Assembly: GCF_014202975.1 (NCBI RefSeq)
Contig: NZ_JACHHZ010000002.1
Coordinates: forward strand, 930,001-994,000
Direction: 5' to 3'
Length of the DNA stretch: 64,000 nucleotides
Source: Povalibacter uvarum
GTDB lineage: Bacteria; Pseudomonadota; Gammaproteobacteria; Steroidobacterales; Steroidobacteraceae
Part shown: positions 243-64,000 of the stretch, piece by piece
Layout of the letters: the number at the start of each line of letters is the position of its first letter
Position numbering within the stretch: position 1 is the stretch's first letter
Program-made: the position numbers and the translations under genes
Notes under the pieces: generated by a model
Database searches by the model: none
The model's input: only the letters and a program-made list of their open reading frames with translations
Told to the model about the DNA's origin: nothing

Positions 243-429
243 GCCAGCTAGCCGCTAGCTGTTAGCCGGCTAGCCAGAGTGTTGTCTTTCTGTGGGTCCG
301 ACTTCAGCCGGACGTCATGCGAAGCATCCCTTCGGCTTACGTCCGGCCAAAGCCGGGCCCACAACAAGACGCGAGCGTCCGATCTCGTCTGGCTAACGGC
401 TAGCTGGCTAGCCGGCTAGCCGGCTAGCC
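243..429. repeat. Composite nested inverted repeat (GCTAGCCG arms around a REP-like core)
   Basis: The outer arms (about 243-277 and 390-429) consist of degenerate tandem GGCTAGCC/GGCTAGCT octamers and are inverted relative to each other. Between them, 291-363 is an independent REP-like palindrome starting TGTGGGTCCG and ending GGGCCCACA. The same core recurs at 7333-7433 and 43937-44009, and the same outer arms recur at 13366-13433 and 63807-64000. The element fills most of the gap between the barrel gene and the FrnE-like gene. Confidence 0.85.
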
Positions 430-495
430 CGAGCTTGAATCAGCCCCATCCCGCCCGCATCTCCCAGGTCTCAACTCTCCGCCGAGGCCTCCCCC

Positions 496-1161
496 ATGCC
501 TGCTCCCCTCAAGATCGACTTCGTCTCCGACGTTTCCTGCCCCTGGTGTGTCATCGGGTTGCGGGGGCTCGAGCAGGCGCTCGAGCGCATCGGCGGCGAG
601 GTTGCCGCGGACATTCATTTCCAGCCGTTCGAGCTGAATCCGCAGATGGCGGTCGAAGGCGAGGACATCGCTGAGCACATCGCACGGAAATACGGTTCGT
701 CGCCGGACCAGCTGGCGCGCAATCAGGAAGCGATTCGCGCTCGTGGGGCGGCGCTGGGCTTTACGTTCAACATGGAGAAGCGTGCGCGCATCTACAACAC
801 GTTCGACGCACATCGGCTGCTGCACTGGGCCGAAGCCGAAGATCGTCAGCATGAGCTGAAGCGTGCGCTGTTCGCGACGTACTTCACCGAGGGGCGCAAT
901 CCCAGTGATCGCGAAGTACTCATCGACGCCGCGAAGGAAGCGGGTCTCGATCCGGCGAAGGCGCGCGAAGTCCTCGAGTCAGATCGCTACGCGAAGGAAG
1001 TTCGCGATCGTGAGCAGTTCTATCAGCGTAGCGGCATTCACGCCGTGCCTTCGGTGATCATCAACGATCAGTACCTGATCCAGGGCGGTCAGCCCGTCGA
1101 GGTTTTCGAGCAGGCGTTGCGGAAGATTGCCGCGGAGAGCCAGAGCGCTGCGGCGACCTGA
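496..1161 (+). CDS. FrnE-like DsbA-family oxidoreductase
   Basis: 221 residues with a thioredoxin-fold DsbA layout. The redox motif CPWC is at residues 15-18, immediately after the first beta strand (KIDFVSDVSCPWC), and a cis-Pro loop follows later (GIHAVPSVIIN). This matches the FrnE/2-hydroxychromene-2-carboxylate isomerase-like branch, whose members are usually 210-220 residues and cytoplasmic. No signal peptide is visible, so a role in periplasmic disulfide formation is unlikely; a cytoplasmic thiol-disulfide or glutathione-linked function is more plausible. The gene stands alone and is convergent with the next gene across a REP-like element. Confidence 0.9.
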   Translation: MPAPLKIDFVSDVSCPWCVIGLRGLEQALERIGGEVAADIHFQPFELNPQMAVEGEDIAEHIARKYGSSPDQLARNQEAIRARGAALGFTFNMEKRARIYNTFDAHRLLHWAEAEDRQHELKRALFATYFTEGRNPSDREVLIDAAKEAGLDPAKAREVLESDRYAKEVRDREQFYQRSGIHAVPSVIINDQYLIQGGQPVEVFEQALRKIAAESQSAAAT

Positions 1162-1169
1162 GCGAGGAT

Positions 1170-1254
1170 CGTCATTCCCGCGCAGGCGGGAATCCATCTG
1201 GGGTTTGGCGCGCTCGGTCAGCAAGGATGGATCCCCGCTTTCGCGGGGATGACG
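1170..1254. repeat. REP-like inverted repeat, ATTCCCGCG family
   Basis: Two hairpin-forming arms: GTCATTCCCGCGCAGGCGGG near 1171 and GATCCCCGCTTTCGCGGGGA near 1229, each ending in GTCAT/ATGAC. It fills the gap between convergent genes. Other copies are at 15399-15446, 21113-21181, 42697-42765, 63104-63171 and 63868-63934, with a half copy at 7448-7472. Confidence 0.9.
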
Positions 1255-1264
1255 TCCGGCGGTG

Positions 1265-2473
1265 TCAGCCGATCAATTCCCCCGCACGCGTCAGCGACAG
1301 CCACTCTTCTTCGCTCGGAAACCCGTCCACCGCGAATCGTGCCGGGAATTCGCTCGTCGCTCTCATGCGATGACCGCAGGTCGCAATCAGCGCGGACCAC
1401 GGCACGAGCAGAAGGTTGTGTGAGCCGTCCGGCTTCGGTCGGCCCAACGCGACCAGATCCGTTTCGGGCAGCAGCGTCGCGACACCTTCGGTCCAGGTCG
1501 ACCAGCTCCAGAGCCCTCCGTCGCCTTCCCGTTTGCTCATCAGCGAGTACGTCGCTACGAACACATCCTCACCGAGATGTTCCTGCAGCGCGGTCTGCTG
1601 GTCGCTGTAGGTCACGGCCATGCTGATGCGCTGAACCGACTGGTGAAGGTCCTGCGTATCGCCCTGGGGAACGAACTCGATCCACTCACCATTCCTTCGT
1701 TGCAGGAGCGTCCCCGACAACGGCCACGGCGCTTCGCGCAACGATCGGTCAGCGTGCGCCAGCAGGCTGCGAATAGCGGCATCGTCTGATCCGTCGCAAC
1801 TCAGCAGCACGCCGCGATTCGCAGGCATCACTACCGCGGTAGCTGCGAAGGGCAGTGCATCGATGACCGCGTCGACGAGCAGGAAGCTTTCTTCGTATGA
1901 GACCGCGGAGACGATCTGGTAGACACCATCGCCGAGCAGCTGCCAGTGCGGACGCTCCAGGGCGCGAAGGTTCTGCAGTGCCTTCATCCTGATCGAATCC
2001 GCTGTCTGGCCCCATGTGTCGAGAAGCGTCTCGTCGACGTGAGCGAGCGCGTGGCCGTGATCGAAGACCAGTCGCAAATGAATGTCCGCGCACAGGGGCC
2101 AGCTGACGGTCCGCTGCAGCGGCATCTTCCCGCTTCGCGATGAAATCTCGAGGGAGACCCGGTCATAGACCGACCGAACCACCGGATAGATGTGCTGCGA
2201 CGCCATGCCCCAGAGCTTGGGGATCTCTTTCGCGCCGGCTTCCAGCATGGATTCGTACTTGAGGAGCAGGTGCTTCCGGTCCGCGCGCCGCGCGTTCAGG
2301 TACTCGAGAAACATGTTCGTGAGATTGATCGTCGCTCCACGCGGATGATGGAGTGCCGCCTTCTCGACGTCGTATCGCCATTGATCGTCGAGCGACCTCG
2401 CCCGGTTCAGCAGGACACGGGCGAAGTCCTCGAGCCTGGGCTTCATGCCCAGGAGTTCGCGCCAGCTCAGCAT
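1265..2473 (-). CDS. DUF1444-like protein of unknown function
   Basis: 402 residues, no signal peptide or membrane segment. The stretch around residues 110-175 (HVDETLLDTWGQTADSIRMK followed by ALQNLRAL) resembles the DUF1444/YtpQ pattern of a conserved Trp followed by an Ala-x-x-Asn-Leu helix, but I rate this family match as only moderate. The C-terminal part includes GRPKPDGSHNLLLVPWSAL. The start is the first ATG of the frame; an internal ATG eight codons later is possible. It lies 98 bases downstream of the beta-propeller gene on the same strand. Confidence 0.6.
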   Translation of the reverse strand: MLSWRELLGMKPRLEDFARVLLNRARSLDDQWRYDVEKAALHHPRGATINLTNMFLEYLNARRADRKHLLLKYESMLEAGAKEIPKLWGMASQHIYPVVRSVYDRVSLEISSRSGKMPLQRTVSWPLCADIHLRLVFDHGHALAHVDETLLDTWGQTADSIRMKALQNLRALERPHWQLLGDGVYQIVSAVSYEESFLLVDAVIDALPFAATAVVMPANRGVLLSCDGSDDAAIRSLLAHADRSLREAPWPLSGTLLQRRNGEWIEFVPQGDTQDLHQSVQRISMAVTYSDQQTALQEHLGEDVFVATYSLMSKREGDGGLWSWSTWTEGVATLLPETDLVALGRPKPDGSHNLLLVPWSALIATCGHRMRATSEFPARFAVDGFPSEEEWLSLTRAGELIG

Positions 2474-2571
2474 TAGAGAGGCCTCCAGATCCCGCAGATG
2501 ATGCGGGTGTCCGGATCATAGCGCCTGGAGCATGACGACGAGCCCGCGGCAATGCCGATCTGAGGCTTCGA

Positions 2572-3477: not shown

Positions 3478-3534
3478 CGTCCTCATGAGGAACGGCGCGC
3501 AGTGTGCCGGCTTGGAAGTGGCGGATGCACTGCT

Positions 3535-3561
3535 CACAATGCCGGTGTTGCCGTCATTGTG
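3535..3561. promoter_or_regulatory. Candidate operator, inverted repeat CACAATG-N13-CATTGTG
   Basis: A perfect 7-bp inverted repeat with a 13-bp spacer in the short divergent region, 18 bases upstream of the Lrp-type ATG and 58 bases upstream of the propeller gene start. Its placement fits autoregulation by the Lrp/AsnC protein; this is inference. Confidence 0.4.
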
Positions 3562-3578
3562 GCGGTGCCGGAGTTTCG

Positions 3579-4004: not shown

Positions 4005-4016
4005 ATCGCGTCCGGA

Positions 4017-4763: not shown

Positions 4764-4883
4764 GACGACTCCTTGTTCTGGTTGTTCGTAGCTGATCGTT
4801 CGTCGACGCACGAGATGTACTCCCACGATCGGGAGTTCGTCAACGCGTTGTCCGAAGTTCCGCTTTTGAGTCCGACACTCTGA

Positions 4884-4905: not shown

Positions 4906-5244
4906 TCACAACAGCTTCGTCCCATTCGGCACTGCCCGCTCCGGCATCGCGAGCACCACTCGCCCCTCTTCATCGTGGAAGCCGGTCACGAGCACTTCGG
5001 AACGGAACGGCCCGATCTGCTTCGGCGGAAAATTCACGACCGCGACGACCTGGCGGCCGACGAGACTCTCCTTCGAGTACAGCGCGGTAATCTGCGCGCT
5101 CGACATCTTGATGCCGATCCGCGGCCCGAAATCGACACGAAGCTTCCACGCGGGCTTGCGCGCTTCGGGAAAGTCGAAGACTTCCAGGATGGTGCCGATG
5201 CGCAGTTCGACTTTGAGGAAGTCGGGCCATTCGATGGGAAGCAT
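4906..5244 (-). CDS. csaA: CsaA-like tRNA-binding domain protein
   Basis: 112 residues from ATG 5244 ([20 protein letters not shown]). It is a single EMAP/Trbp111-type OB fold, with the family signatures KMSSAQIT and [17 protein letters not shown]. CsaA homologues are homodimers that bind tRNA and were described as export-linked chaperones in Bacillus. The open frame extends 26 codons further, but that part is encoded by a heptamer repeat element and is not homologous to the family, so the internal ATG is preferred. It lies downstream of ilvB on the same strand, separated by the repeat; a functional link is not evident. Confidence 0.9.
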
Positions 5245-5247
5245 GAT

Positions 5248-5338
5248 GGGTGACGGGTGACACGTGACGATACAGATCATGCCAGAGCTCTCTGGCGCTG
5301 ACTCCATGCATCGTTCTGTCACCCGTCGCTAGTCACCC
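5248..5338. repeat. Inverted repeat with GTGACGG heptamer arms
   Basis: The left arm is GGGTGACGGGTGACACGTGA and the right arm GTCACCCGTCGCTAGTCACC, both made of about three 7-nt units and inverted to each other, with a loop of about 45 nt. The element provides the TGA stop of ilvB and begins three bases upstream of the CsaA-like start codon. A second copy is at 33702-33786. Confidence 0.8.
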
Positions 5339-7024
5339 TTCCTGGTGATCCAGCGCCTCCACATTCGCCTTCCCCGGCGCAACCATCGGCAGGACGTGCT
5401 CGTCAGCCGCGATCGGCACTCTGATGAGCATGGGGCCTTCGCCATGCAGAGCACGGGCAAGCGTGCCGTGAGGAGCAGGGCAGGACTCGAGATCGATCGC
5501 GGGGATACCGAAGGCGCGCGCGATAGCGACGAAATCGCCGGGCTGGTTGAACTGCGAAGCGACCAGCCGTTTGCCGTAGAAGAGCGTCTGCTGCTGACGC
5601 ACGAGCCCGAGGGCCGCATTGTCGAGGAGCACGATCTTCACTTTGAGGCCGAGCTCGCTCAGGGTGGCGAGCTCCTGGATGTTCATGAGCAGACTGCCGT
5701 CGCCCGTGAAGCAGATGACGGTTGCATCGGGCCGGACGAGTGCGGCGCCGATGGCGGCGGGCAGGCCGAATCCCATCGTGCCCAGACCCCCTGAAGTGAG
5801 CCAGCGATCAGGGCGCTGGAAGGGATAGGCCTGCGCCACCCACATCTGGTGCTGGCCCACATCGGTCGTGACGATGGCATCCACCGGAGCGACTGCACCC
5901 ACGGCGCGAATGATGCCGTACGGCGAGCACACCTTCTCGATGCCGGGAGTCCGCAGCGGATGGCTTTGTCTCAAGGCGCGGATGCGGGCGAGCCACTGGG
6001 GACGATGCTGGTAGTGCGCCCGTGCGATGAGTTCGTTCAGCGCGCCGCCCGCATCGGATTCGATCGCCAGCGTGGGTTTGCGGATCTTGCCGAACTCGCG
6101 GGGATCGATGTCGATGTGAATGACCTGTGCCTGGGATGCGAAGCGGTCGGTTCGTCCGGTAGCTCGATCGTCGAAGCGGGCACCGATGCTGATCAGCAAA
6201 TCGCACTCATCGATGACGTGATTCGTAAAGCGCGCGCCGTGCATGCCGAGCATGCCCATGCTCAGGGGGTGGTCCGTCGGCAGCGCGCCGAGCGCCATCA
6301 GCGTGGTCGTGACGGGTGCCTGGATCAGTTCCGCGAGCTCGCGAAGGAGATGGTGAGCGCGTGCTTTGACGACACCGCCGCCGATGTAGAGCACCGGTCG
6401 CTGGGCGGCTTCGATCATTTGCCACGCAGTGTCGAAGTGGGAAGTGTTCGTGGAGGGCGTTGCGGTGGCGGGGATCTGTTCTCGGGTTTCCGGCGCTGCA
6501 TGGAGTGCGGGAGCAGTGCATCTCTGGAACTGCACGTCTTTGGGAACATCGATGAGCACGGGTCCGGGACGCCCGCTCTCGGCAATTCGAAATGCCTCGG
6601 GAATCAGGTCCCACAGTTCATTCGCATCCCGGACGAGGAAGCACGCCTTGGTGACCGGACTCACCATCGCCGTCGTCGGCACTTCCTGGAATGCGTCGGT
6701 GCCGATCAGCTGTTGTGGCACCTGGCCTGCGATGCACACGAGCGGAATCGAGTCGAGTTTCGCGTCGGCAATCGCGGTGATGATGTTGGTGACGCCTGGC
6801 CCTGACGTCGCAAAGCACACGCCAGCACGCTGCGTAATTCGCGCCATGCCCTGCGCGATGAATCCCGCGGCCTGCTCATGTCGCGCGAGGATGTGCAGCA
6901 GCTTTGTCGAGCGACCGAGCGCTTCGTAGAGCGGCAGCAGCGCACCGCCGGGAATTCCCGCGACGATACGAACGCCCTGCTGTTCGAGCAGATGGATGAT
7001 GAGATCGGCACCGGTGAAGGTCAT
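5333..7024 (-). CDS. ilvB: Acetolactate synthase large subunit, IlvB type
   Basis: 563 residues from ATG 7024 (MTFTGADLIIHLLEQQGVRI). This thiamine diphosphate enzyme condenses two pyruvates, or pyruvate and 2-oxobutyrate, in branched-chain amino acid synthesis. Visible are the catalytic Glu of ARHEQAAGF, the N-terminal GIPGG motif, the central FAD-binding domain and the C-terminal ThDP motif GDGSLLMNIQ. It is strikingly E. coli IlvB-like (GQHQMWVAQAYPFQRP, TSGGLGTMGFGLPAAIGAAL). It is preceded by a Val/Ile-rich leader and attenuator. No ilvN-type regulatory subunit follows; the next gene is CsaA-like. The last codon and TGA overlap a repeat element. Confidence 0.96.
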   Translation of the reverse strand: MTFTGADLIIHLLEQQGVRIVAGIPGGALLPLYEALGRSTKLLHILARHEQAAGFIAQGMARITQRAGVCFATSGPGVTNIITAIADAKLDSIPLVCIAGQVPQQLIGTDAFQEVPTTAMVSPVTKACFLVRDANELWDLIPEAFRIAESGRPGPVLIDVPKDVQFQRCTAPALHAAPETREQIPATATPSTNTSHFDTAWQMIEAAQRPVLYIGGGVVKARAHHLLRELAELIQAPVTTTLMALGALPTDHPLSMGMLGMHGARFTNHVIDECDLLISIGARFDDRATGRTDRFASQAQVIHIDIDPREFGKIRKPTLAIESDAGGALNELIARAHYQHRPQWLARIRALRQSHPLRTPGIEKVCSPYGIIRAVGAVAPVDAIVTTDVGQHQMWVAQAYPFQRPDRWLTSGGLGTMGFGLPAAIGAALVRPDATVICFTGDGSLLMNIQELATLSELGLKVKIVLLDNAALGLVRQQQTLFYGKRLVASQFNQPGDFVAIARAFGIPAIDLESCPAPHGTLARALHGEGPMLIRVPIAADEHVLPMVAPGKANVEALDHQEG

Positions 7025-7305: not shown

Positions 7306-7332
7306 GCGGGGCGACGGAGCGGAGCCTCTTCT

Positions 7333-7433
7333 TGTGGGTCCGGCTTTAGCCGGACGTCATCGCGAAGCGATCCCGGAATGCCGCGCACAGCGCGGTGCCT
7401 GCGGCATGACGTCCGGCTGAAGCCGGACCCACA
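7333..7433. repeat. REP-like inverted repeat, GGGTCCGGCTT family
   Basis: It begins TGTGGGTCCGGCTTTAGCCG and ends with the complementary GGCTGAAGCCGGACCCACA. Each arm is itself a hairpin, and an internal GCCGCGCACAGCGCGG-type hairpin sits in the loop. Other copies are at 291-363 and 43937-44009. Confidence 0.88.
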
Positions 7434-7447
7434 AAGGGAAAAAGATC

Positions 7448-11319: not shown

Positions 11320-11467
11320 TTTCACACGGAGATCACGGAGATATTCAGAGCAGGACACAGAATCCGCGGGTCGGAGCCTTTAGGACCGTGGCCGAGACAG
11401 GCGAGGAACCTCTCTCTACATTGTCTTCCTCCGTGATCTCCGTGATCTCCGTGAACTCCGTGTGAAA
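11320..11467. repeat. Inverted repeat with CACGGAGAT nonamer arms
   Basis: The left arm begins TTTCACACGGAGATCACGGA. The right arm is four tandem CTCCGTGAT-type 9-mers ending CTCCGTGTGAAA. The arms are inverted and separated by about 75 nt of unrelated sequence. The element fills the gap between convergent genes. Related elements are at 40891-40978 and 35980-36128, with a half copy at 16573-16597. Confidence 0.88.
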
Positions 11468-13363: not shown

Positions 13364-13365
13364 GA

Positions 13366-13433
13366 GCCAGCTGGCCGGCTAGCCAGACTAAGAAGAGCTA
13401 CTGTCTCTTCCTCTCGTTCTGGCTAGCCGGCTT
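13366..13433. repeat. Inverted repeat with GCTAGCCG octamer arms
   Basis: GCCAGCTGGCCGGCTAGCCA on the left and TCTGGCTAGCCGGCTT on the right, with a loop of about 31 nt. It fills the gap between convergent genes. Same family as the outer arms at 243-429 and 63807-64000. Confidence 0.82.
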
Positions 13434-21112: not shown

Positions 21113-21181
21113 CGTCATTCCCGCGAAAGCGGGAATCCATCTGGACCCAAGACATGGATTCCCGCTTTCGCGGGAATGACG
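21113..21181. repeat. REP-like inverted repeat, ATTCCCGCG family
   Basis: Two near-identical arms, ATTCCCGCGAAAGCGGGAAT and ATTCCCGCTTTCGCGGGAAT, separated by CCATCTGGACCCAAGACATGG. It fills the gap between the convergent GIN lipoprotein and lhr genes and ends 10 bases from the lhr stop. Confidence 0.92.
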
Positions 21182-21190: not shown

Positions 21191-24100
21191 TCATGCCAAC
21201 TGCGTCAGTGTCACCGGCACTTGCCTTCGCAGCAGCACGCTCTGTGCCTGCCACTGCTCAGCAGGCTCCAGCTGCTCCAGGAAGGTCACATCGCCGCTGG
21301 CGAATACAGCGACAGGGACGCCGTCGCGGTACACCAGCCGATTCCCCGTCAGCGAGGGCAACCGCGCACCCGGCGTGAGGATGCCGATCAGATTCAGTGG
21401 ATCGGCGGCCGAGAGCGAAATCAGTTCGCTGTTGCCCGGCTTGCGACGCGCTTCGCGCAGCAACCCGATCGCTTCAGGCAACGCGAACTGTTCGCCCGAG
21501 AAACCCGCAACGAATCGGCCGCCGCGGATCTCACCGCGCGCTTCCAATCGCCGCAGGCACAACAGGATCTGGCGCCACGGCGGCAGCCAGCCCGATTCGC
21601 GCTCGAGCAGTTTCCAGAACACGACGCCCCAGCGGCGCAACAGCGAGCGGCAAACGTGTTCGATCGCATCCGCTTCCAAGGCCTGAGGCGTGAGGCTCGA
21701 GGATTGAGCGGAGGCTCCGGGCTCGTGCCTCGTGCCTCGCGCCTCGTGCCGTCTCTTGACCAACGTCCATCGACCCGCATCCTGCATCCCAAAGATCGCG
21801 ATCCGGCGCTTGCGTCGTGCATCGCGAGCATTCGGGCGCCGTCGGTCCGAGGGGACAAGCAACGCGCGCAGGCCGCCGAAGCTGTCGGAGTTCACGAGGC
21901 CGAGCGCAACCAGTTCACCGAGCGCATCCTCGACCTGGTTCGGCAGAAGTCCCGCACTCTCGACGATCTCGTCGAAGAACGAAGCGCCGTGCGCCTGGAT
22001 GAAATCGGCGACCTGCTGGGCCTTCGGAGTGAGCTGTACGCGGTCGCTGGGTTCGACGAAGCTCGACCAGATCCGGACGTTGCGGCGAGCGAGCAGTGCG
22101 ATGGGTGTCGAGCGCACTGGCGCCGCGCCGCGCTCGGAATCACCGCTGCGAGTTGCGAGCCGCGTCCACACGATTCGGCCCGCGAGGCATTGCTCGTCGA
22201 GCCATGCCGGCTCGTACTCCGCGATGCGTGCCGGCAGCACTTCGGTTTCCCATGCGCTTGCGGGAGCTTCGAAGCCCTCGAGTTGCGCGAGCACTGCGGG
22301 AACTGCGTCAGGTCCCTGCATCCGCGTTGCTGGCGTGACGCGTTGCCAATCGAACAGGAAGCGCAGGAAATCACGAGCGAGCACCGGCTCGATCTCCGCG
22401 CGCAGACGTTTGACCGTGTAGCGATGGATGCGGGCGAGAAGACGGCGATCGCACCACTGTTGCGACGCGTGACCAGTCACAGGTGACTGGTCGAACTGTC
22501 CGCGCATGGCGGTGCCCTCCGCTTCGAGGGCGAGCAGCGCGGCATCGATATCCTTCATCGACGCGCCGAGGCAATCAGCGATTTCGCGAGCCGTCGTGGG
22601 GCCGAGGCCCTCGAGCCGCCCGCGGACCACTTCGACGAACGCGTCTTCCTTCGGCCAGGATTTCGCGTATGCCGCGGGAATCGCAGCGCGTTGCGCGTCA
22701 TCGAGAGAGCCCAGTGCTGCATCGAACAGCGGCAAGCGTTCGACCGCGACGAAAATGCCCGCGGCTCCGCTCGACAACCGCTCGACCCTGCGCTTCGTGA
22801 TCAGCTCCTGCATCAACCCCGGCCACACCGGATTGCGCTGAGCTTCATCCGAGGTGATGAAAGTCAGCCACAACAACGCATCGTGGAGCTCGTCGACAGA
22901 GCCCGCATCGGGCCAAGCTTCCGCGCGCACGCGGGCGATGGCGTCCGGATCGAGCTTGCCGATGTCCGAAGCGGACTGAGGATCGAGCCAGCGACGACTC
23001 GCGACCGCCTGGGTGCGGCGTTCTTCCAGTGGCGCATCGTCGAGATACGCATAGGGCCGCGCGGACAGGACTTCGAGCGCGAGCGGCGATGGCTCCGTCA
23101 GATCGCGAGCTTCGACGGCGATCTCTCCGCTCAGCAACCCACGCAGCAAACGTTCGAAGCCGTCGATGTCCATGGCGTCTTCGAGGCAATCGCGCACGGT
23201 CTGCTGAACCAGCGGATGATCGGGAACTTCGATGTCACCGACGATGTTCTCGCCGCAGGCAACCTGGTCGGGGAAAACAGATGCGAGCAGATCTTCGGCA
23301 TTCATGCGCGCGAGCGCGGGTGGTACTTTCTTGCCACCACGGAATCGCGGCAACGCGAGCGCGATCGAAGCATCCCACCGCCAGCGCGTCGTAAACATCG
23401 GCGCGTCGAGCAGCGCCTGGATGAGCAGTTCGCGCGCAGTGTTCGGATGCAGATAACGAGCGACATCGATGAGCTCGAAACTGTGAGCCGTCGTGAGCGA
23501 CAGGATGATCGTGTCTTCCGTTGCCGCCGCCTGCAGCTCGAAGTTGAAGCTGCGGCAGAACCGCTTGCGCAGCGTCAGGCCCCATGCACGGTTGATACGA
23601 TTGCCGAACGGCGAATGAATGACGAGCTGCATGCCGCCCGCTTCGTCGAAGAAGCGTTCGAAGACGATTCGCTCCTGCGTCGGCAAGCAGCCCAGGGCTG
23701 CGTGACCGGCGGCGAGATAGTCGAAGATCTGTGTGGCCGCCGGTTCTGGCAGGCCCAGCGTGTCTTCGAGCCAGGTACGGGCGGAGGCCTCGAGCCTCCG
23801 CTCAAACTCCTTCCGCAACCGCGACACTGCAACGGACAGCTCGTTCGTCCTGCCCGGTGCCTCGCCGAGCCAGAACGGAATCGACGGTGGTTCGCCGTGT
23901 GCATCCTCGACGCGCACCATGCTGCGTTCGACGCGAAGAATCCGGTAGGACTGGTTGCCGAGCTGGAAGATGTCGCCCTGCAGGCTCTCGACAGCGAAGT
24001 CCTCGTTGACCGTGCCGACGAGCGTGCCTTCCGGTTCGAGCATGACCTGGTAGTCCGCTGTGTCCGGAATCGCACCGCCGGAGGTGATCGCAGTCAGTCG

Positions 24101-33692: not shown

Positions 33693-33701
33693 GGGGGAAG
33701 A

Positions 33702-33786
33702 CCAGTGACGTGTGACGGGTAACCAGTGACGAGAAGCGGCTGACGGGGACTGCCGAGGTCGTTACCCGTCACCCATCACTCGTCAC
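33702..33786. repeat. Inverted repeat with GTGACGG heptamer arms
   Basis: The left arm CCAGTGACGTGTGACGGGTA followed by ACCAGTGACG is complementary to the right arm GTTACCCGTCACCCATCACT followed by CGTCAC. It lies inside the efflux operon and provides the TGA stop of the membrane fusion protein gene. Same family as 5248-5338. Confidence 0.8.
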
Positions 33787-35979: not shown

Positions 35980-36128
35980 GATTTTCCACGGGGAGCACGG
36001 GGTTTCACGGGGGCCGGGCATATATATACGGAAGGGCTCAGCGATCGTTGTCGCGCTGGTCGTCATTTCAAGCTCGCGCTTTCAGACTCTTTTCTGCCCC
36101 GTGCTCCCCGTGTCCCCCGTGGAAAATC
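35980..36128. repeat. Inverted repeat with CACGGGG arms
   Basis: The left arm GATTTTCCACGGGGAGCACG continuing GGGTTTCACGGGGG is complementary to the right arm CCCCGTGCTCCCCGTGTCCC continuing CCGTGGAAAATC. The loop is about 80 nt and includes CATATATATACG. It fills the gap between convergent GST and Rieske genes. It is a variant of the CACGGAGAT family. Confidence 0.86.
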
Positions 36129-39611: not shown

Positions 39612-40877
39612 ATGAAGAAGCGTCGCGAAGCACTGGCCAGGCAGAATTTTCCCGGCGCCGCTGCTGTTCGTCATGAGCAGATGCTCGATGCGGCCGCCCG
39701 GCACCTGAATGCCAGCGGCGTATCGCTCACTTCCCTGAGCGATATCGCCGAAAGCCTCGGCGTCTCGCGCGCAACGCTCTACCAGTACATCGAGGATCGC
39801 GAGGACCTGGTCTTCCAGTGCTACCGGCGCTCCTGCGAAGTCATGGCCCGGCATCTCGGCGAAGCCATCCGCCTCGGCTCCGACGCCACGCAGGTCGTCT
39901 CGATCTTCGTCGATCGCATGCTCGATCCGACGCGCCCCGAAACGGCGACGCGCGCGGAGATCGCGGTGCTGAATCAGGAACGGCACGAAATCATTCAGGG
40001 CCTCTACGACGCGATCATCACGCGTCTTGCAAGCGTGCTCGAAGCGGGAGCGCAGGCCGGCGTGATGCGCCGCTGCGACGCGCACATCAACGCGAACACG
40101 ATCATCAGTCTCGTCACCTGGGTGCCGCTGATGCACTACTGGGCGCCGGCATCGCGCAGCTATCCCGCCGAGCGTTTTTCCGAAGCACTCAAGAGTGCGA
40201 TTCTCGACGGCATTGCCATCGAGAAGCAGGTGATGCCGCCGTACCAGGCGATCGACCTGTCGCCGCTCATCGCGCGTGTCGTCGGCGTGTTCGATCGCGA
40301 TGCCGTGGTCGATGCGAAGCGCGAGACGCTGCTGGCGATCGCGTCGCGCCTGTTCAACAGCAAGGGCATCGATTCGACCTCGCTGGAGGAGATCGCGGGC
40401 CACGTCGGTGCGACCAAGCGCACGCTGTATCACCATCTCGGTGACAAGCAGACGCTGCTCGCTCGCTGTTATGCACGGGCGTTCCGCATCTTCCTGTTCA
40501 TCATGGAACGCATGACGGACTACTCGGGCACGCGCGCGCAGGCACTGGCCGCGGCGTTCCATGCGTTGTCGAAAGCCTACCTGCGCGATGACCTGTCGCC
40601 GCTCGCACCGCTCGTCGGTCACGAGGCGCTGAAGGGCGAAACTCAGGCGCAGATGGAACCGCAGGCGGCAGCCCTGACCGAGGGCTATCTGAATGCGCTC
40701 AACATCGGCTGCACGGAAGGCACGCTGAAGGTCGACGACGTAACCGCGCAACTCATGCTACTGCCGGGCTTCGTGAGCTGGCTCGTGAAGGACACGGGAA
40801 CGCACGCGGAGGATCGTGTCGAGCACATCGCTCGCGAGATCAGCGCGCTTTTGTGCCTTGGTCTTCGCAGGACCTGA
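39612..40877 (+). CDS. Tandem TetR-family regulator (two DNA-binding domains)
   Basis: 421 residues, about twice the normal TetR length. Two complete TetR HTH domains are visible: one at about residues 20-66 (LSDIAESLGVSRATLYQYIE) and one at about 219-265 (LEEIAGHVGATKRTLYHHLG). Each is followed by a helical ligand-binding-type region. The gene reads through with no stop, so this is a fused or duplicated regulator, which could act as an intramolecular dimer. The divergent membrane protein gene is a possible target. An upstream promoter is not obvious. Confidence 0.88.
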   Translation: MKKRREALARQNFPGAAAVRHEQMLDAAARHLNASGVSLTSLSDIAESLGVSRATLYQYIEDREDLVFQCYRRSCEVMARHLGEAIRLGSDATQVVSIFVDRMLDPTRPETATRAEIAVLNQERHEIIQGLYDAIITRLASVLEAGAQAGVMRRCDAHINANTIISLVTWVPLMHYWAPASRSYPAERFSEALKSAILDGIAIEKQVMPPYQAIDLSPLIARVVGVFDRDAVVDAKRETLLAIASRLFNSKGIDSTSLEEIAGHVGATKRTLYHHLGDKQTLLARCYARAFRIFLFIMERMTDYSGTRAQALAAAFHALSKAYLRDDLSPLAPLVGHEALKGETQAQMEPQAAALTEGYLNALNIGCTEGTLKVDDVTAQLMLLPGFVSWLVKDTGTHAEDRVEHIAREISALLCLGLRRT

Positions 40878-40890
40878 AGCCGGACCGGAG

Positions 40891-40978
40891 TTTCACACGG
40901 AGTTCACGGAGTGCACGGAGGGCAAGAAAAGCAAACAAAGTTTCTGATCTCCGTGCTCTCCGTGAACTCCGTGTGAAA
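40891..40978. repeat. Inverted repeat with CACGGAGTT nonamer arms
   Basis: TTTCACACGGAGTTCACGGA on the left and CTCCGTGAACTCCGTGTGAA on the right, with a loop of about 35 nt. It fits between the convergent TetR and M20 genes, 13 bases from one stop and eight from the other. Confidence 0.9.
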
Positions 40979-40986
40979 TCTCGCTC

Positions 40987-42294
40987 CTACTTCCCCTGCA
41001 GATAGTCCGTCGCCACCGCGAGCATCGCGCGCATGCCGGTCTGCATTCCGGCTTCATCCACATAGAACAGCGGTGAATGATTGAACGCGACGGTTGCCGG
41101 GTCCTTGTCCGGCGGCGTGATGCCGACCCAGAAGAAGAACGCGGGGACCTGCAGCCCGTAGAACGAGAAGTCTTCGGCAGTAGTCTGCAAGGTGATGAGA
41201 CGAACGCCGTCCTTGCCCGCCACGCGTTCCAGCGATGGCAGCGAACGCTGCGTCAGCGCTGCGTGATTGATCACCGGCGGGATTGCGCTGTCGCGAACGG
41301 TGAGGGTCGCGGTGGCGCCATTCGCCGCGGCGATGCTCTGCACGGTGCGATCCATGCGTTTGATGATGTCCGTGCGCATGGCGGGATCAAACGTGCGCAG
41401 CGTGCCGATCATCTCGACGTTGTCGGGAATGATGTTGAAGCGGATGCCGCCCTTGATCGCACCGATGCTGATGACGGCAGGCACTTCGGTGATGTCGATC
41501 TGGCGGCTGACGATCGTCTGCAGGCCTGACACGATCTGTGAAGCAGTGACGACGGGATCGACCCCGCCCCAGGGGCGCGAGCCGTGCGTCTGCCGTCCCT
41601 GCACGTTGATCGTGAAGGCGTCGGAGCCCGCCATCATCGGGCCGGGTCGATAGCCGATCACGCCGGTGGGCAAAGATGCGATCACGTGAAGGCCGAACAC
41701 GGCTTCGGGCTTTGCGATATCGAACAGGCCTTCCGCGAGCATGCGTCGCGCGCCGCCCGTCTCGCCTTCAGGTGCGCCTTCTTCCGCCGGCTGGAAAATG
41801 AAAAGGATCTGACCCCGCAGCTGCTGACGTCGGCTGCTCAGGATCTCCGCGACGCCGAGCAGCATCGCTGTGTGCGAATCGTGTCCGCACGCGTGCATCA
41901 CGCCAACAGTTTCGCCGCGAAACTGCGTCGTGACTTTCGACTTGAAGGGCAGGTCGACCTGCTCGGTGACGGGCAGCGCATCCATGTCGGCGCGCAGCGC
42001 GATCGTCGGACCAGGCTGACCACCGCGCAGCAGCGCTGCAACGCCGGTGAGTCCGATGCCCGTCTTGGTTTCGAGTCCCATCGCGCGCAGCCGCTTCGCA
42101 ACGACTTCGGCCGTGCGCACTTCGCGATTGCTCAGTTCGGGATGCTGGTGAAAATCGCGGCGCCATTCGATGACTTTCGGTTCGATCGCCCTGACCGCTG
42201 CGTCGAGTTCCGTTGCTGTCAGGTCGGCATGAGTTGTGGCGGAGAGACTGGCGAGGGCGAGGAGCAGGGCACAACGAAAGCGGCGCGAAATCAT
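40987..42294 (-). CDS. Exported M20-family amidohydrolase
   Basis: 435 residues from ATG 42294, with GGAG six bases upstream. A signal peptide (CALLLALASLSATTHA) is unusual for this mainly cytosolic family. M20D amidohydrolase motifs: DFHQHPELSNRE, ALRADMDALPVTEQ, MHACGHDSHTAMLLG and PAEEGAPEGETGG, which supply the metal-binding His, Asp, Glu and Cys residues, plus the dimerisation domain. Relatives hydrolyse N-acyl amino acids, hippurate or indole-acetyl conjugates. A periplasmic scavenging role is likely. Convergent with the TetR gene. Confidence 0.93.
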   Translation of the reverse strand: MISRRFRCALLLALASLSATTHADLTATELDAAVRAIEPKVIEWRRDFHQHPELSNREVRTAEVVAKRLRAMGLETKTGIGLTGVAALLRGGQPGPTIALRADMDALPVTEQVDLPFKSKVTTQFRGETVGVMHACGHDSHTAMLLGVAEILSSRRQQLRGQILFIFQPAEEGAPEGETGGARRMLAEGLFDIAKPEAVFGLHVIASLPTGVIGYRPGPMMAGSDAFTINVQGRQTHGSRPWGGVDPVVTASQIVSGLQTIVSRQIDITEVPAVISIGAIKGGIRFNIIPDNVEMIGTLRTFDPAMRTDIIKRMDRTVQSIAAANGATATLTVRDSAIPPVINHAALTQRSLPSLERVAGKDGVRLITLQTTAEDFSFYGLQVPAFFFWVGITPPDKDPATVAFNHSPLFYVDEAGMQTGMRAMLAVATDYLQGK

Positions 42295-43913: not shown

Positions 43914-43936
43914 CCACGCGCGGCTGCAATTCTTGC

Positions 43937-44009
43937 TGTGGGTCCGGCTTTAGCCGGACGTCATCCGACTGGATGCTTCGCATAGCGTCCGGCTAAAGCC
44001 GGACCCACA
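43937..44009. repeat. REP-like inverted repeat, GGGTCCGGCTT family
   Basis: TGTGGGTCCGGCTTTAGCCG and CGGCTAAAGCCGGACCCACA are near-perfect inverted arms, with CATCCGACTGGATGCTTCGC between them. Copies are at 291-363 and 7333-7433. Confidence 0.92.
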
Positions 44010-44071
44010 GGAAGAGCGAGCGCTTCAAGCGCAGACCAAGAACAACACACGCCTTCCATGAGACCGGGCCT

Positions 44072-48740: not shown

Positions 48741-48847
48741 GGCTGCGAGCTGCGAGCGGCGAGCAATGAGCCAGAAAGGGAAACGTTCGGTCGCCGCGGA
48801 AAGCTCCGGTGTTCTGGCTCGCGGCTCACAGCTAGTCGCTCGCCGCT
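48741..48847. repeat. Inverted repeat with TGCGAGC heptamer arms
   Basis: The left arm GGCTGCGAGCTGCGAGCGGC followed by GAGCAATGAGCCAGA is complementary to the right arm TTCTGGCTCGCGGCTCACAG followed by CTAGTCGCTCGCCGC. The right arm runs into yeaH and supplies its last codons and TAG stop. Related copies are at 55588-55712, 56319-56431 and 60281-60360. Confidence 0.85.
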
Positions 48848-55587: not shown

Positions 55588-55712
55588 GCTGCGGGCGACG
55601 AGCGGTGAGCTGCGAGCGATGAGCCAGAGGGCGTGCCGCGAAGTAAAACCGCTGACGCAAGAGGGTAAGATCTTCCCTTCCTACTTCTGGCTCATCGCTC
55701 GCCGCTCATAGC
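55588..55712. repeat. Inverted repeat with TGCGAGC heptamer arms
   Basis: The left arm GCTGCGGGCGACGAGCGGTG followed by AGCTGCGAGCGATGAGCCAG is complementary to TTCTGGCTCATCGCTCGCCG followed by CTCATAGC. It lies between the divergent hsp20 and methyltransferase genes, unlike most members, which sit at 3' ends. Confidence 0.85.
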
Positions 55713-55720
55713 CCTTCCTC

Positions 55721-56320
55721 ATGTCCACCCGCTTCGACCCATCCTTCTACCGCCGCTTCTACAAGAATCCCCGCACTCGCGTGACAACTCGCGAAGAGAT
55801 GTCGAGGCGAGCGAACGCCATCGCGGGCCTCATGCGGTATCTGGAGCTGCCCGTGAAATCCATCCTGGATGCGGGCTGCGGGCTCGGGCTGATGAGGGCG
55901 AGTCTGCTGCGGTCATTTCCCGGTGCGACCTACACAGGTATTGAGGTGAGCGAGCATCTTTGCAAGCAGTACGGCTGGACGCAGGCATCGCTTGCAGCCT
56001 ATCGACCAGCGCGGCGTTTCGATCTCATCGTCTGCTACGACGTGCTCCAGTACCTGACCGACCGCGAATCCGTCCGTGCACTCGCGAATCTGGGACGGCT
56101 ATGTCGTCGCGGTCTGTATTTCCACGCTCCTACACACGAGGACTGGGCAGACAACGCCGACCTCTCGTGCAGCGACAGTGACATTCAGCTGCGGGAGGCC
56201 AATTGGTACCGTGAGAGGCTCGATCGCAACTTCAGCCACGTGGGCTTTGGGCTGCACGTGAGGCGAGGGGTGGCGTTCGCGCAGTGGGAGATGGAGAAGC
56301 CGGCAGAGAAGAGGCTGTGA
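55721..56320 (+). CDS. Class I SAM-dependent methyltransferase
   Basis: 199 residues. Rossmann motif I is LDAGCGLGLMRASLL, followed by YTGIEVSEHLC and the FDLIVCYDVLQYLTDRES motif of the class I fold. No signal peptide. The substrate is unknown; the small size suggests a small molecule or a lipid head group rather than rRNA. The start is 9 bases after a heptamer repeat and the TGA stop is formed at the edge of the next one. Convergent with a LysR gene. Confidence 0.88.
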   Translation: MSTRFDPSFYRRFYKNPRTRVTTREEMSRRANAIAGLMRYLELPVKSILDAGCGLGLMRASLLRSFPGATYTGIEVSEHLCKQYGWTQASLAAYRPARRFDLIVCYDVLQYLTDRESVRALANLGRLCRRGLYFHAPTHEDWADNADLSCSDSDIQLREANWYRERLDRNFSHVGFGLHVRRGVAFAQWEMEKPAEKRL

Positions 56321-56431
56321 GCGGCGAGCGCTGAGCTGCGAGCCAGAGACGAGGCCGCGAGCTACGAGTGGTGAGAGGAGGCTATGAGCCAAACCCCTCT
56401 GGCTCACCGCTCACAGCTCGCAGCTCATTGC
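56319..56431. repeat. Inverted repeat with TGCGAGC heptamer arms
   Basis: The left arm GAGCGGCGAGCGCTGAGCTG followed by CGAGCCAGA is complementary to CTCTGGCTCACCGCTCACAG followed by CTCGCAGCTCATTGC. It lies between convergent genes and supplies the stop codon of the LysR gene (TGA within GCAATGAGC) and overlaps that of the methyltransferase gene. Confidence 0.87.
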
Positions 56432-57342
56432 TTCTTCCAGAACGGATCCTCATCCGAATTCTCCCCCCACCTCCCGACCAGCGTATCGATGAAGCTGCGC
56501 ACCTTCGCGGTCTGGTGTTTGCGGTGGGGATAGACGATGAAGATGCCCAGGGCGCCGGCGTCGTAGTCGGTCAGCAAAGGAACGAGGCGGCCGGTGCGCA
56601 GTTCGTCGCTGACATTGAAGGTGGGTTGAAGGACGACGCCCTGGCCCTGCAGGGCTGCGAGTTTCAGGAGCTCGTTGCTGCTCGCGCGCAGGCTGCCCGC
56701 CGCCTTTACGACGGAGACGCGTCCTTCCTTCGACAGTCGCCATTCTCCGGCCAGAGTCGGGTCGCTGAAGGCCAGGCAGTTGTGGTGGACCAGGTTCTCC
56801 GGGATCTGCGGCGTACCGTGCGCCTCCAGATACGCAGGCGCTGCACAGACGACGAGGTTCGAAGTCGCGAGCTTGCGGGCGACGAGATTCGTGCGCAGCT
56901 GGTTCGTGATGCGCACGGCAAGATCGAATCCTTCCTCGATCAGGTCGACGAGGTGATTGCTCACCGACACATCGATGCGCACATCCGGATACTCGCGCGA
57001 GTATTCGAGCAGCACCGGTCCCAGATGATTCACGCCGAAATCTGTCGAGACGCTCATGCGCAGCGATCCGCGCGGCGTAGAGCTCTGCGCGCCTGCGATC
57101 GCTTCGGCTTCATCGAGATCCTCGAGCAGCTGGACGCAGCGCTGGTAGTAGGCGTGGCCGGAATCCGTGAGGCTCAGCGAGTGTGTCGAACGGTTTAACA
57201 GTCGCGATCCGAGCGATTGCTCGAGGTGACTGATGTACTTGGTCACCATCGGTGCCGACACGCCCATGCGTCGCGCCGCTTCCGCGAAACTGCCGGATTC
57301 GACGACGCGCACCAGCGCCTGCATACACGTGAACTTGTCCAT
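56425..57342 (-). CDS. LysR-family transcriptional regulator
   Basis: 305 residues from ATG 57342 (MDKFTCMQALVRVVESGSFA). Winged HTH AARRMGVSAPMVTKYISHLE, then the effector-binding domain (LRMSVSTDFGVNHLGPVLLE). The in-frame extension upstream is Gly/Arg-rich and not LysR-like. It is divergent from lpxR across about 390 bases that contain a CACTATCGATAGTG palindrome, so control of lpxR is possible but not shown. Confidence 0.92.
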   Translation of the reverse strand: MDKFTCMQALVRVVESGSFAEAARRMGVSAPMVTKYISHLEQSLGSRLLNRSTHSLSLTDSGHAYYQRCVQLLEDLDEAEAIAGAQSSTPRGSLRMSVSTDFGVNHLGPVLLEYSREYPDVRIDVSVSNHLVDLIEEGFDLAVRITNQLRTNLVARKLATSNLVVCAAPAYLEAHGTPQIPENLVHHNCLAFSDPTLAGEWRLSKEGRVSVVKAAGSLRASSNELLKLAALQGQGVVLQPTFNVSDELRTGRLVPLLTDYDAGALGIFIVYPHRKHQTAKVRSFIDTLVGRWGENSDEDPFWKKQ

Positions 57343-58883: not shown

Positions 58884-61121
<2,238 letters not shown>

Positions 61122-61455
61122 GGAAGTGGCTGATGTGCCGGTAATTTGCTGGCAACTGGCCAGCGGGGAGGGGGCGAATGATAGCCCAGGCCGTGGGTCC
61201 CGTGCCTGCGGCGATCCCGCACACGGACGAAGCTGGATTTCCTGAACGGGCGGCGTCTGACAGACCAACCACCCCTCCGGGTGGGCAGGCATTTGCTGAA
61301 GGCCGGGTCAGCTCCAACCCTGACGAGAGGGCATCTGGGAGACACGGGTCCCGGACTGAGAACTGTGCACCTTCAGGCCCCGGCCGGGGTGCCGCTAAGG
61401 GATTGCGTCGCCACAAAGGGGTGGACCGCCGTCATTGTCCCGGAAGAGCCCAACC
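61122..61455. other. Divergent leader region between ygiQ and a chemoreceptor
   Basis: 334 bases without a gene. It contains a perfect CCCCGGCCGGGG palindrome at 61378-61389 and GC-rich hairpin-capable segments. The chemoreceptor leader was checked against the cyclic di-GMP-I riboswitch pattern and does not carry its conserved core. No FliA (sigma-28) promoter match was seen. Confidence 0.5.
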
Positions 61456-63093: not shown

Positions 63094-63103
63094 GGGAACT
63101 GGA

Positions 63104-63171
63104 TGTCATTCCCGCGTAAGCGGGAATCCATGCCTTTCATCGGATGGATCCCCGCTTGCGCGGGGATGACG
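63104..63171. repeat. REP-like inverted repeat, ATTCCCGCG family
   Basis: ATTCCCGCGTAAGCGGGAAT and ATCCCCGCTTGCGCGGGGAT arms separated by CCATGCCTTTCATCGGATGG. It fills the convergent gap and ends eight bases before the glycosylase stop. Confidence 0.9.
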
Positions 63172-63179
63172 GGCACCTC

Positions 63180-63788
63180 TCAAGTGCTGGTCGGAGCAGG
63201 GAGCATCTTCTTCCTTCTCGCCGCGCTCACCGTCGATACGTACGGTGACTTCGTGTCGAAGAATCGCCAGGGCTTCTTTGCCCATTCGCCGGCGTAGTCC
63301 ACGCCGATGCGCGTGCTCCGTGCAATCGAAGGCTTTCGATAGACATCTCGCGTGGGACGCTCGATCCAGAGCGTGCCGCCCGTCAAGTCGGTGCCCGTGA
63401 GGGCTCGATCGATCTGCAACGCGCGGCAAAGCAGGCCAGGACCATGCGTCGTGTCGGTGATTCCGGCGACGGGCTCGAGTCCACGAATGAGGACGGCGTG
63501 CGGAACGCCGTCCGCGGCCGTTACCACGTTCATGCAGTTCCAGAATCCATAGATGAGGTAGACGTACGCATGTCCCGGCGGACCGAACATCACTTCGGTT
63601 CGTTTCGTGCGACCGCGTGAGGAGTGCGCTGCGAGGTCGTGCGGACCCTTGTAGGCCTCGGTCTCGACGATGCGGCCCACCTGGCGCCCGTGCACACCGA
63701 CGCGTACGAGATGCAGCCCGATCAGTTCACGAGCGACTGTGAGCGTCTCGCGCGCGTAAAAAGAGCGGGGGAGCTTGCGGGAAGACAT
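63180..63788 (-). CDS. DNA-3-methyladenine glycosylase, AAG/MPG family
   Basis: 202 residues. AAG family, unrelated in fold to AlkA/Tag: catalytic Glu in VGRIVETEAYKGPHDLAAHS, VMFGPPGHAYVYLIYGFWNC, and VLIRGLEPVAG, with GPGLLCRALQID near the C-terminus. It removes alkylated bases such as 3-methyladenine and hypoxanthine, starting base excision repair. Monocistronic. The last residues PAPTST lie next to a REP-like repeat. Confidence 0.94.
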   Translation of the reverse strand: MSSRKLPRSFYARETLTVARELIGLHLVRVGVHGRQVGRIVETEAYKGPHDLAAHSSRGRTKRTEVMFGPPGHAYVYLIYGFWNCMNVVTAADGVPHAVLIRGLEPVAGITDTTHGPGLLCRALQIDRALTGTDLTGGTLWIERPTRDVYRKPSIARSTRIGVDYAGEWAKKPWRFFDTKSPYVSTVSAARRKKMLPAPTST

Positions 63789-63806
63789 GGGGGAGTATGA
63801 GGAGAA

Positions 63807-64000
63807 AGCTGGTTAGCCTGCTAGCCGTTAGCCAGCTAGCCAGAGACACGCATGCGTGGTGGCGCTACGTCATTCCCGCGCACGCGGAATCCGTCCGGAG
63901 CAAGGCATGGACTCCCGCTTTCGCGGGAGTGACGAAGCACCCACAACCAGATGCTCGCCCTTCCGGGTCGGGCTACCGGCCAGCTGGCTAGTGGCTAGCC
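63807..64000. repeat. Second composite nested element (GCTAGCCG arms around an ATTCCCGCG core)
   Basis: The outer left arm at about 63807-63844 (GCTGGTTAGCCTGCTAGCCG followed by TTAGCCAGCTAGCCAG) and the outer right arm at 63971-64000 (GGCTACCGGCCAGCTGGCTA followed by GTGGCTAGCC) are GCTAGCC octamer runs. Between them, 63868-63934 is a full ATTCCCGCG-family REP. The layout mirrors 243-429 but with a different inner family. The element may continue past the window. Confidence 0.82.

What the first reader, a model, noticed from the sequence alone, without database searches (positions are those of the whole stretch)
243..64000. Five unrelated inverted-repeat families share one architecture: arms built from degenerate 7-9 nt tandem units
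Seen directly: families with unit types GCTAGCCG (8 nt), CACGGAGAT (9 nt), TGCGAGC, CGAGGCA and GTGACGG (7 nt each) all form long inverted repeats whose arms are three or four imperfect copies of a short unit, with unrelated loops of 10-80 nt. The unit sequences differ, yet the design is the same, which suggests one generating process (for example slippage plus template switching, or an unknown replicating element) rather than descent from one element. I do not recall a named class defined by this architecture, although heptamer repeats and REP sequences are known separately.
Basis: partly seen in the sequence, partly recalled or inferred. Interest (0 to 1): 0.7.

Follow-up and report, generated by a model that had tools for sequence, protein, structure and literature searches.

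The report
Facing arrays of short degenerate repeats
Short repeated DNA words, arranged as two facing arrays with an unrelated piece of DNA between them, sit just beyond gene ends in this bacterium and some of its relatives; related species often carry a different word at the same spot, which points to a little-understood way of making or spreading such elements.

Summary
In 972 kb of this 6.3 Mb genome (kin of Steroidobacter), 74 of 100 intergenic inverted repeats that are not REP-like have arms with a period of 7-9 nt (one of 10); 0 of 16 in genes and 1 of 54 REP-like do. Units are cores of 4-7 nt plus 1-3 free positions. Arms are G-rich inward (69 of 74), start a median 10 nt after stop codons, and often hold a typical number of units (CACGGAG 3+3 in 13 of 16). 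The two arms of an element are no more alike than arms of different elements, and 32 of 32 loops searched are unique in the genome, so whole-element transposition and palindrome copying both fit badly. Relatives show empty sites, and 7 of 9 doubly occupied orthologous junctions carry different units. The nonamer CACRGAGNN (three in a row) occurs in 33 of 369 gammaproteobacterial genomes sampled. One such family (GGGNATC, Xanthomonas, PMC4692102) is in print; several families in one genome with these properties I did not find in nine paper searches. 'One process' is supported; slippage plus template switching as sole cause is not. The mechanism stays inferred.

The parts
243..429 (.). GCTAGCC (8 nt) facing arrays, left arm about 243-278, right arm about 389-429, enclosing a REP-like hairpin (284-370)
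5237..5342 (.). GTGACGG (7 nt) facing arrays, arms 5237-5262 and 5317-5342; overlaps the called start of 4906-5244 and the end of the TPP-enzyme gene 5333-7024 (both minus strand)
11320..11467 (.). CACGGAG-NN (9 nt) facing arrays, 2 units left and 4 right, between convergent LysR and GGDEF genes
   Evidence: the G013 ortholog has CACAGAG outer arms with CACGGGG arms nested inside
13364..13431 (.). GCTAGCC facing arrays ending in CCAGA/TCTGG, between convergent called genes
   Evidence: G013 has a REP-like hairpin at the same junction
21679..21754 (.). CGAGGC (7 nt) facing arrays inside the long Lhr-helicase ORF 21191-25555 (minus strand), at about residues 1267-1292, between two winged-helix matches
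33700..33784 (.). GTGACGG facing arrays filling the 90-nt gap between the HlyD-type and AcrB-type genes of one gene pair
35980..36128 (.). CACGGGG-NN (9 nt) facing arrays with TTTTCC outer end, 2 units left and 3 right, between convergent genes
40891..40978 (.). CACGGAG-NN facing arrays, 3 units per arm, TTTCA outer ends, between convergent genes
   Evidence: RNA fold z -12.0 (40876-40993); G013 has a REP-like hairpin here
48742..48846 (.). NRYGAGC (7 nt) facing arrays between the DUF444 and SpoVR genes; overlaps the DUF444 stop codon
   Evidence: gap of -4 to 58 nt in 35 of 38 mapped places in relatives, 114 nt in one, another heptamer array in G011 (2 places)
55597..55717 (.). NRYGAGC facing arrays ending in GAGCCAGA/TCTGGCTC
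   Evidence: decayed GAGC array in G013 and GTCCGCA array in G011 at the same junction (G013 read by eye)
56308..56437 (.). NRYGAGC facing arrays between convergent methyltransferase and LysR genes
   Evidence: GGCGCAAA nonamer element in G013 at the same junction
60281..60367 (.). NRYGAGC facing arrays inside the called radical-SAM ORF 58884-61121 (minus strand), at about residues 251-280 of 745
63808..64000 (.). GCTAGCC facing arrays around a CCCGCG REP-like hairpin; cut by the window end
7332..7434 (.). REP-like hairpin GTGGGTCCGGCTTTAGCCGGAC (fixed consensus; comparison class, not a unit array)
   Evidence: also 284-370 and 43931-44015
21113..21181 (.). REP-like hairpin CGTCATTCCCGCGAAAGCGGGAATCCAT (fixed consensus; comparison class)

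Best explanation
These are one class of dispersed, DNA-level intergenic elements whose spreading part is the arm (typically three nonamers or three to five heptamers), not the whole hairpin. Shown: arms recur across the genome while loops do not; arms come in facing pairs with the G-rich strand pointing inward, mostly just after stop codons; cores are kept while other positions are free; related genomes lack the element or carry another unit at the same junction. Inferred: each unit core is recognised by a trans-acting factor, and a new element arises when both ends of a break or gap beside a gene end are extended with sequence copied from existing arms elsewhere (or from another template), the loop being whatever lies or is filled in between. 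Families then expand and vanish lineage by lineage, in genomes that, like 13 of the 14 searched, give no match to the hairpin nuclease SbcD.
For: 74 of 100 intergenic non-REP inverted repeats periodic; 69 of 75 facing stop codons within 30 nt; more G than C inward in 69 of 74. Core positions 1.1-2.0 bits, free positions 0.1-1.1 bits (cores partly fixed by the search itself). Arms of an element no more alike than arms of other elements of the family, five families tested. 32 of 32 loops searched match only themselves in 6.3 Mb. Short gaps without element in relatives, also at gene pairs likely to be operons; a clean insertion behind a shared terminator in G013 (window 58796). At L038:9660 part of the loop aligns with the element-free G013 interval (score 68, above the 99% null of 50), so there the arms seem to flank old intergenic DNA. 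Of 9 doubly occupied orthologous junctions 7 have clearly different units. Typical unit number: CACGGAG 3+3 in 13 of 16. SbcD: no match in 13 of 14 genomes.
Against: No enzyme or template was identified; RVT_1 has no match in G000, which speaks against ordinary reverse transcription there. The ancestral-loop pattern was seen in 1 of 43 comparisons, about what a 1% threshold allows. In-register identity of free positions is slightly above random for GAGC (0.552 v 0.472, p 0.03), so some copying between arms is not excluded (that register was chosen for complementarity, which biases upward). Unit number varies (GAGC 2 to 8, CACGGGG 3+3 in only 4 of 10) and left-right counts do not correlate within GAGC (rho 0.20, p 0.22, 39 elements) although they did in the filtered set (0.42, p 0.03, 27 elements). 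28 of 105 intergenic arrays have no partner, some of them unrelated repeats. Co-occupation of orthologous junctions by unit arrays alone is marginal (odds ratio 2.7, p 0.055). Old elements could have lost loop similarity by drift.
Confidence: 0.36

Rival explanations
1. Non-autonomous transposable elements (REP/BIME moved by RAYT, or MITEs moved by another transposase), copied as whole units and then decaying.
For: Scattered copies, presence/absence at orthologous sites; a Y1 transposase over the cut-off in G000 and one below it, five in G013, one in G011; two fixed-consensus REP-like families in the same genome.
Against: 32 of 32 loops searched are unique and 3 weak pairs among 51 loops; no excess of direct words at the ends (mean 2.99 v null 2.95); more unit families than RAYT genes in G000; G003, G006 and G012 have RAYT but no unit-array element in 60, 23 and 86 kb sampled.
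Confidence: 0.2
2. Selected binding sites: each unit binds a DNA or RNA protein (chromosome architecture, gyrase, or an OB-fold protein), and facing arrays are kept by selection.
For: Core positions stay fixed while others are free; typical number of units; position after stops; binding of heptamer repeats by a cold-shock protein, one protein per heptamer, is reported (PMC4679880 passages).
Against: Several unrelated cores per genome; at the same junction relatives have other cores or nothing; samples of nine genus members show none.
Confidence: 0.2
3. Slippage plus template switching at pre-existing palindromes.
For: Some arms are homogeneous runs that look slipped separately (L014:9716); long perfect runs in other genomes (G140, G236, G262); unit number varies in several families; adjacent GAGC units slightly alike in a loose set.
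Against: Same units at many unlinked loci; arms not copies of one another; adjacent units not more alike than random in the element set; whole elements at near-zero gaps.
Confidence: 0.14
4. Functional RNA hairpins: transcription terminators or mRNA stabilisers.
For: Strong predicted folds (z -2.8 to -12 for 6 window elements); position after stops.
Against: No U-tract (5 or more T in 8 nt in 9 of 148 ends); no excess of G.U over A.C on the transcribed strand (49 v 55); elements between genes of likely operons; terminator-like hairpins lie inside 3 of 74 loops; no Rfam match in the window.
Confidence: 0.1

Closest known systems
GGGNATC heptamer repeats of Xanthomonas and GGGGA(C/T)T of Nostoc (Rehm et al. 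2015, PMC4692102)
   Same: Heptamers with fixed and free positions, preference for four units, intergenic, facing pairs in 70 (Xcc) and 75 (Xac) cases, close to gene ends.
   Different: [quoted passage not shown] here many families per genome, different units at the same site in relatives, most cores without runs of three G.
TAACTGA direct repeats of Beggiatoaceae (PMC4679880)
   Same: Intergenic heptamer arrays of 2-6 units with patchy distribution.
   Different: Direct, mostly upstream of starts, one inverted case; here facing pairs after stops.
REP/BIME with RAYT transposases (PMC2817692, seen in search listing only)
   Same: Intergenic palindromes, many copies; empty sites in relatives (recalled for REPs).
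   Different: REPs have a fixed consensus; unit arrays have free positions, varied cores and unique loops.
Cyanobacterial STRR heptamers (recalled; PMC4692102 mentions tandem heptanucleotides in Calothrix)
   Same: Short tandem heptamers.
   Different: Facing-pair architecture is not part of what I recall of the definition.

Membership tests
Rehm-type heptamer repeats (PMC4692102) | Intergenic tandem heptamers, mostly about four units, fixed and free positions | tested here: met
   period 7 in 50 of 74 elements; 3-5 units usual in heptamer families; profiles
Rehm-type heptamer repeats (PMC4692102) | Facing (inverted) pairs | tested here: met
   77 of 105 intergenic arrays paired
Rehm-type heptamer repeats (PMC4692102) | G-tracts able to form quadruplexes (GGGNATC) | tested here: not met
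   cores GAGC, GCGGWT, CACGGAG, TAGCC lack runs of three G; CACGGGG and GGGGATA have them; by reading only, no quadruplex program
REP/BIME | Fixed palindromic consensus of 20-40 nt | tested here: not met
   free positions and varied cores; met only by the two REP-like families
REP/BIME | RAYT gene in the genome | tested here: met
   one match over the cut-off and one below it in G000
REP/BIME | Cognate hairpins flanking the RAYT gene | tested here: inconclusive
   the one G000 locus fetched (L191, about 3 kb) holds another hairpin and no unit array; the weaker G000 match was not fetched
MITE | Shared internal sequence between copies | tested here: not met
   32 of 32 loops unique; the 41 other elements have shorter loops or, one, an array in the loop, and were not searched genome-wide
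MITE | Target-site duplication | tested here: not met
   2.99 v 2.95 shuffled mean, 69 of 200 shuffles as high
Intrinsic terminator | U-tract after the stem | tested here: not met
   9 of 148 ends with 5 or more T in 8 nt
Simple sequence repeat by slippage | Variable unit number | tested here: inconclusive
   CACGGAG 3+3 in 13 of 16, but GAGC 2 to 8 units and CACGGGG 2 to 4
Simple sequence repeat by slippage | Neighbouring units more alike than distant ones | tested here: inconclusive
   not so in four families of the element set (GAGC 0.414 v 0.472); slightly so in a loose GAGC set (0.376 v 0.312)

The most novel reading that the evidence does not exclude
A template-directed capping process: after a break beside a gene end, both 3' ends are extended with the same short unit (core copied, some positions free), some 20-40 nt each, and then joined, leaving two facing arrays around a unique loop. 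It would be formally like telomere addition at both ends of a break, with the template changing between lineages, which would explain facing orientation, independent arms, unique loops and different units at one site.
Probability: 0.11. Interest if true: 0.92.

Novelty: new variant of a known kind. Interest (0 to 1): 0.67.

Why it matters
Short tandem arrays are usually put down to polymerase slippage. Here kept cores with free positions, unique loops, independent arms and different units at orthologous sites ask for a further origin. If the nonamer and heptamer families found in scattered Gammaproteobacteria are one class, a common piece of bacterial intergenic DNA lacks an explanation that is directly testable with close strains.

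Tried and rejected
Whole-element transposition: loops and direct words at the ends tested, no sign. Terminator and RNA-hairpin selection: no U-tract, no G.U excess. Quadruplex explanation: most cores lack G-runs. RAYT as general driver: presence does not track the elements. Reverse transcriptase: none found in G000. SbcCD loss as the distinguishing cause: no SbcD match in 13 of 14 genomes, with and without elements, so at most permissive. Ku: in 13 of 14, not distinguishing. Single origin in the genus: on a SpoVR tree the five element-bearing genomes need 4 changes, no better than shuffles (232 of 500). Intrastrand-triplex BoxC motif (PMC4666352): not the same in kind as far as abstract and passages show.

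Weak points of my own work. The gene finder is home-made; starts are approximate. Stretches are a biased sample (32 of 40 near TGCGAGC hits). Relatives were sampled lightly (23-86 kb for most). The null was contaminated by same-junction pairs; one search repeats it cleanly. In one search the family labels are by pattern: at least one CACGGGG element (L036:1468) was labelled REP, and a decayed GGCTACA array (L036:6171 ortholog) and a decayed GAGC array (55525 ortholog) were missed, so the counts there are approximate; they are not corrected for gap length or gene orientation.
Full report
What is there. The window lies at C2:930001-994000 of a 6.32 Mb genome in 11 contigs. The five families of the finding are present as facing arrays. 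Beyond the window I read 40 sample stretches and six neighbouring ones, 972 kb with the window.

Is it more than chance. Ungapped inverted repeats of score 15 or more: 94 in 852 kb, 2 in a Markov-1 control. In the 972 kb set at score 13 or more there are 171: 54 REP-like, 100 other intergenic, 16 in genes, one at a stretch edge. Arms are periodic in 1 of 54, 74 of 100 and 0 of 16; the 74 have period 7, 9, 8, 10 in 50, 19, 4, 1 cases. Looking for arrays first, not inverted repeats, gives the same: 105 intergenic arrays, 73 of period 7, 13 of period 9, 9 of period 8 and 10 of the other periods tried (6, 10-12); 77 of 105 have an inverted partner within 260 nt, against 9 of 105 with shuffled arrays. 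Only about 12% of the sequence is intergenic by my gene calls; 36 further arrays lay in called genes, some of them these families at or in ORFs.

Anatomy. Units are a core with free positions: CACGGAG-NN, CACGGGG-NN, GCGGTT-R (A and G 50:50, no C or T), GCGGAT-R, TAGCC-N-GC, GAGC-NRY in this genome (the GAGC profile, with core 1.1-1.6 bits, includes chance coding chains); CACGGGG-RR, GGCGAC-W, CTGGC-KR in G013 and others in G011 (some from very few units). The core is fixed partly by the way I searched; the A/G-only variation of some free positions is not. Unit number is typical rather than fixed: without filter, CACGGAG 3+3 in 13 of 16 elements, CACGGGG 3+3 in 4 of 10 (range 2-4), GCGGTT 3-4 in 9 of 9, GAGC mostly 4-5 with a range of 2-8 in 39; left and right counts correlate over all 80 (rho 0.54) but that is mostly family differences, within GAGC rho is 0.20, p 0.22 (the filtered set gave 0.69 and 0.42). 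The left arm has more G than C in 69 of 74; the outer 12 nt are 68% purine; heptamer arms end in CAGA in 56 of 100 arms, background 5%, nonamer arms in 6 of 38. Loops: quartiles 26, 45, 64 nt. Elements lie 10 nt (median) after a stop codon, 69 of 75 facing stops within 30 nt; starts median 42 nt, 31 of 73 within 30. Per junction they are about equally frequent between co-oriented (53 of 509), convergent (11 of 129) and divergent (10 of 132) genes. Some fill junctions of likely operons: DUF444-SpoVR and HlyD-AcrB.

Are the arms copies of each other. Comparing each arm with its partner and with arms of other elements of the family, with the best register in both cases, gives no difference in five families (GAGC 20.0 v 19.7 of 24, p 0.16; others p 0.23-0.66). 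In the register of the inverted repeat, free positions are a little more alike than random for GAGC (0.552 v 0.472, p 0.03) and not significantly for three others; that register was picked for complementarity. On the transcribed strand mismatches are 49 G.U and 55 A.C, so nothing suggests selection for an RNA stem.

Are the loops copied. Among 51 trimmed loops, 3 pairs have weak similarity. 32 of the 33 loops with 28 nt or more after trimming, searched against the whole genome, gave 33 matches: 32 themselves and one antisense match within one of those same loops. Arms of the same families occur by the hundred (GCGGWT triple: 335 hits v 18 control). No target duplication was seen.

Relatives. 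At DUF444-SpoVR, 35 of 38 mapped places in relatives (some genomes twice) have a gap of -4 to 58 nt, one 114 nt, and the two places of G011 138 nt with a facing array of GGGGATA-type heptamers; this genome has the GAGC element. Of 112 orthologous junctions mapped to G013, unit arrays are in both 9, here only 16, there only 15, neither 72 (odds ratio 2.7, p 0.055); unit arrays or REP-like: 22, 14, 18, 58 (odds ratio 5.1, p 0.00025). Of the 9, seven have clearly different units (for example GAGC v GGCGCAAA, GAGC v GGCGACA, GCGGTT v CACGGAG); 11304 shares CACRGAG outer arms and L036:15800 has CACGGAG v CACGGGG. One further site (55525) keeps a decayed GAGC element in G013, seen by eye. Alignments show a clean insertion in G013 behind a terminator that both species share (58796), and one site (L038:9660) whose loop aligns in part with the element-free G013 interval; in 43 comparisons this is the only one above the 99% null, and the mean does not differ from the null (14.6 v 14.1).

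Who has them. Sampled stretches: several families in G013 and G011, four elements of different units in 43 kb of G007, one in 41 kb of G010, none in G001 (60 kb), G002 (40), G003 (60), G004 (40), G005 (80), G006 (23), G008 (65), G009 (40), G012 (86). Outside the genus, 5 in 1.17 Mb of 79 loci, L044-L122 (a few of these loci are again genus members), with yet other units (among them CACAAAGGA, GGTGAACG, TTTTCAG). The pattern CACRGAGNNCACRGAGNNCACRGAG occurs in 33 of 369 gammaproteobacterial genomes (28 of 271 genera) and its reversed control in none listed; of 12 loci fetched, my finder shows a CACRGAG facing pair in seven and a pair of another unit in two (L258 AAGTTCC, L267 ACGCAGATT). GCGGWT triples: 5 of 369.

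Candidate machinery. Y1 transposases: G000 1 (+1 below cut-off), G013 5, G011 1, also G003 2, G006 1, G012 1. RVT_1: none in G000. SbcD: no match in 13 of 14, partial in G003, with E. coli among the positive controls. Ku in 13 of 14. None of these separates genomes with from those without elements.

Reading. The class is real, is one design with many units, and is not explained by slippage alone, palindrome copying, whole-element transposition or terminator function. The view that fits most facts is that arms, not hairpins, are what spreads, two at a time and facing, beside gene ends. How is not shown. The closest printed case is the GGGNATC repeat of Xanthomonas (PMC4692102; I read abstract, introduction, discussion and two result sections), whose authors also noted facing pairs and left the function open. 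PMC4666352 I saw as abstract and passages, PMC4679880 as passages. Searches listed no paper on several such families in one genome; the library lacks most subscription journals.

Noticed in passing
genus-wide (G000-G013): No SbcD match (TIGR00619) in 13 of 14 genomes, a partial one in G003: much of the genus may lack the SbcCD hairpin nuclease.
   Followed up: partly
window 60281-60367: The GAGC array pair lies at about residues 251-280 of the radical-SAM ORF; the N-terminal Pfam profile (301 positions) is spread over residues 23-398, so the array may sit in an insertion within the protein.
   Followed up: no
window 21679-21754: CGAGGC array pair inside the called Lhr-helicase ORF, between the WH3 and WH4 matches.
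   Followed up: partly
window 33692, 55721; L019, L022: Some called starts next to an element are preceded by pyrimidine-rich CTTCCCC- or CTTCCTC-ATG without an obvious Shine-Dalgarno; starts are approximate.
   Followed up: no
window 48832-48846: The element overlaps the DUF444 stop: the last codons and stop are themselves units, so the C-terminus differs from G013.
   Followed up: partly
L014:9716, L042:8381, L042:14145: Terminator-like hairpins lie inside 3 of 74 loops, all between convergent genes.
   Followed up: partly
L168:10153-10358, L153:2376, L151:9737 (G013): Nested elements: CACRGAG arms outside, GAAGAAGAA, then CACGGGG arms inside; in the window GCTAGCC arms enclose REP-like hairpins.
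   Followed up: partly
G140:C11:17208, G236:C1:102100, G262:C1:2965526: Long homogeneous runs of the same units (CACAGAGGG, CACGGAGTA, GCGGTTA), so slippage does seem to occur in some arrays.
   Followed up: no
L021:18532-18563: A solo array CCCGAATCCCGAGTCCCGAG resembles the Xanthomonas GGGNATC unit.
   Followed up: no
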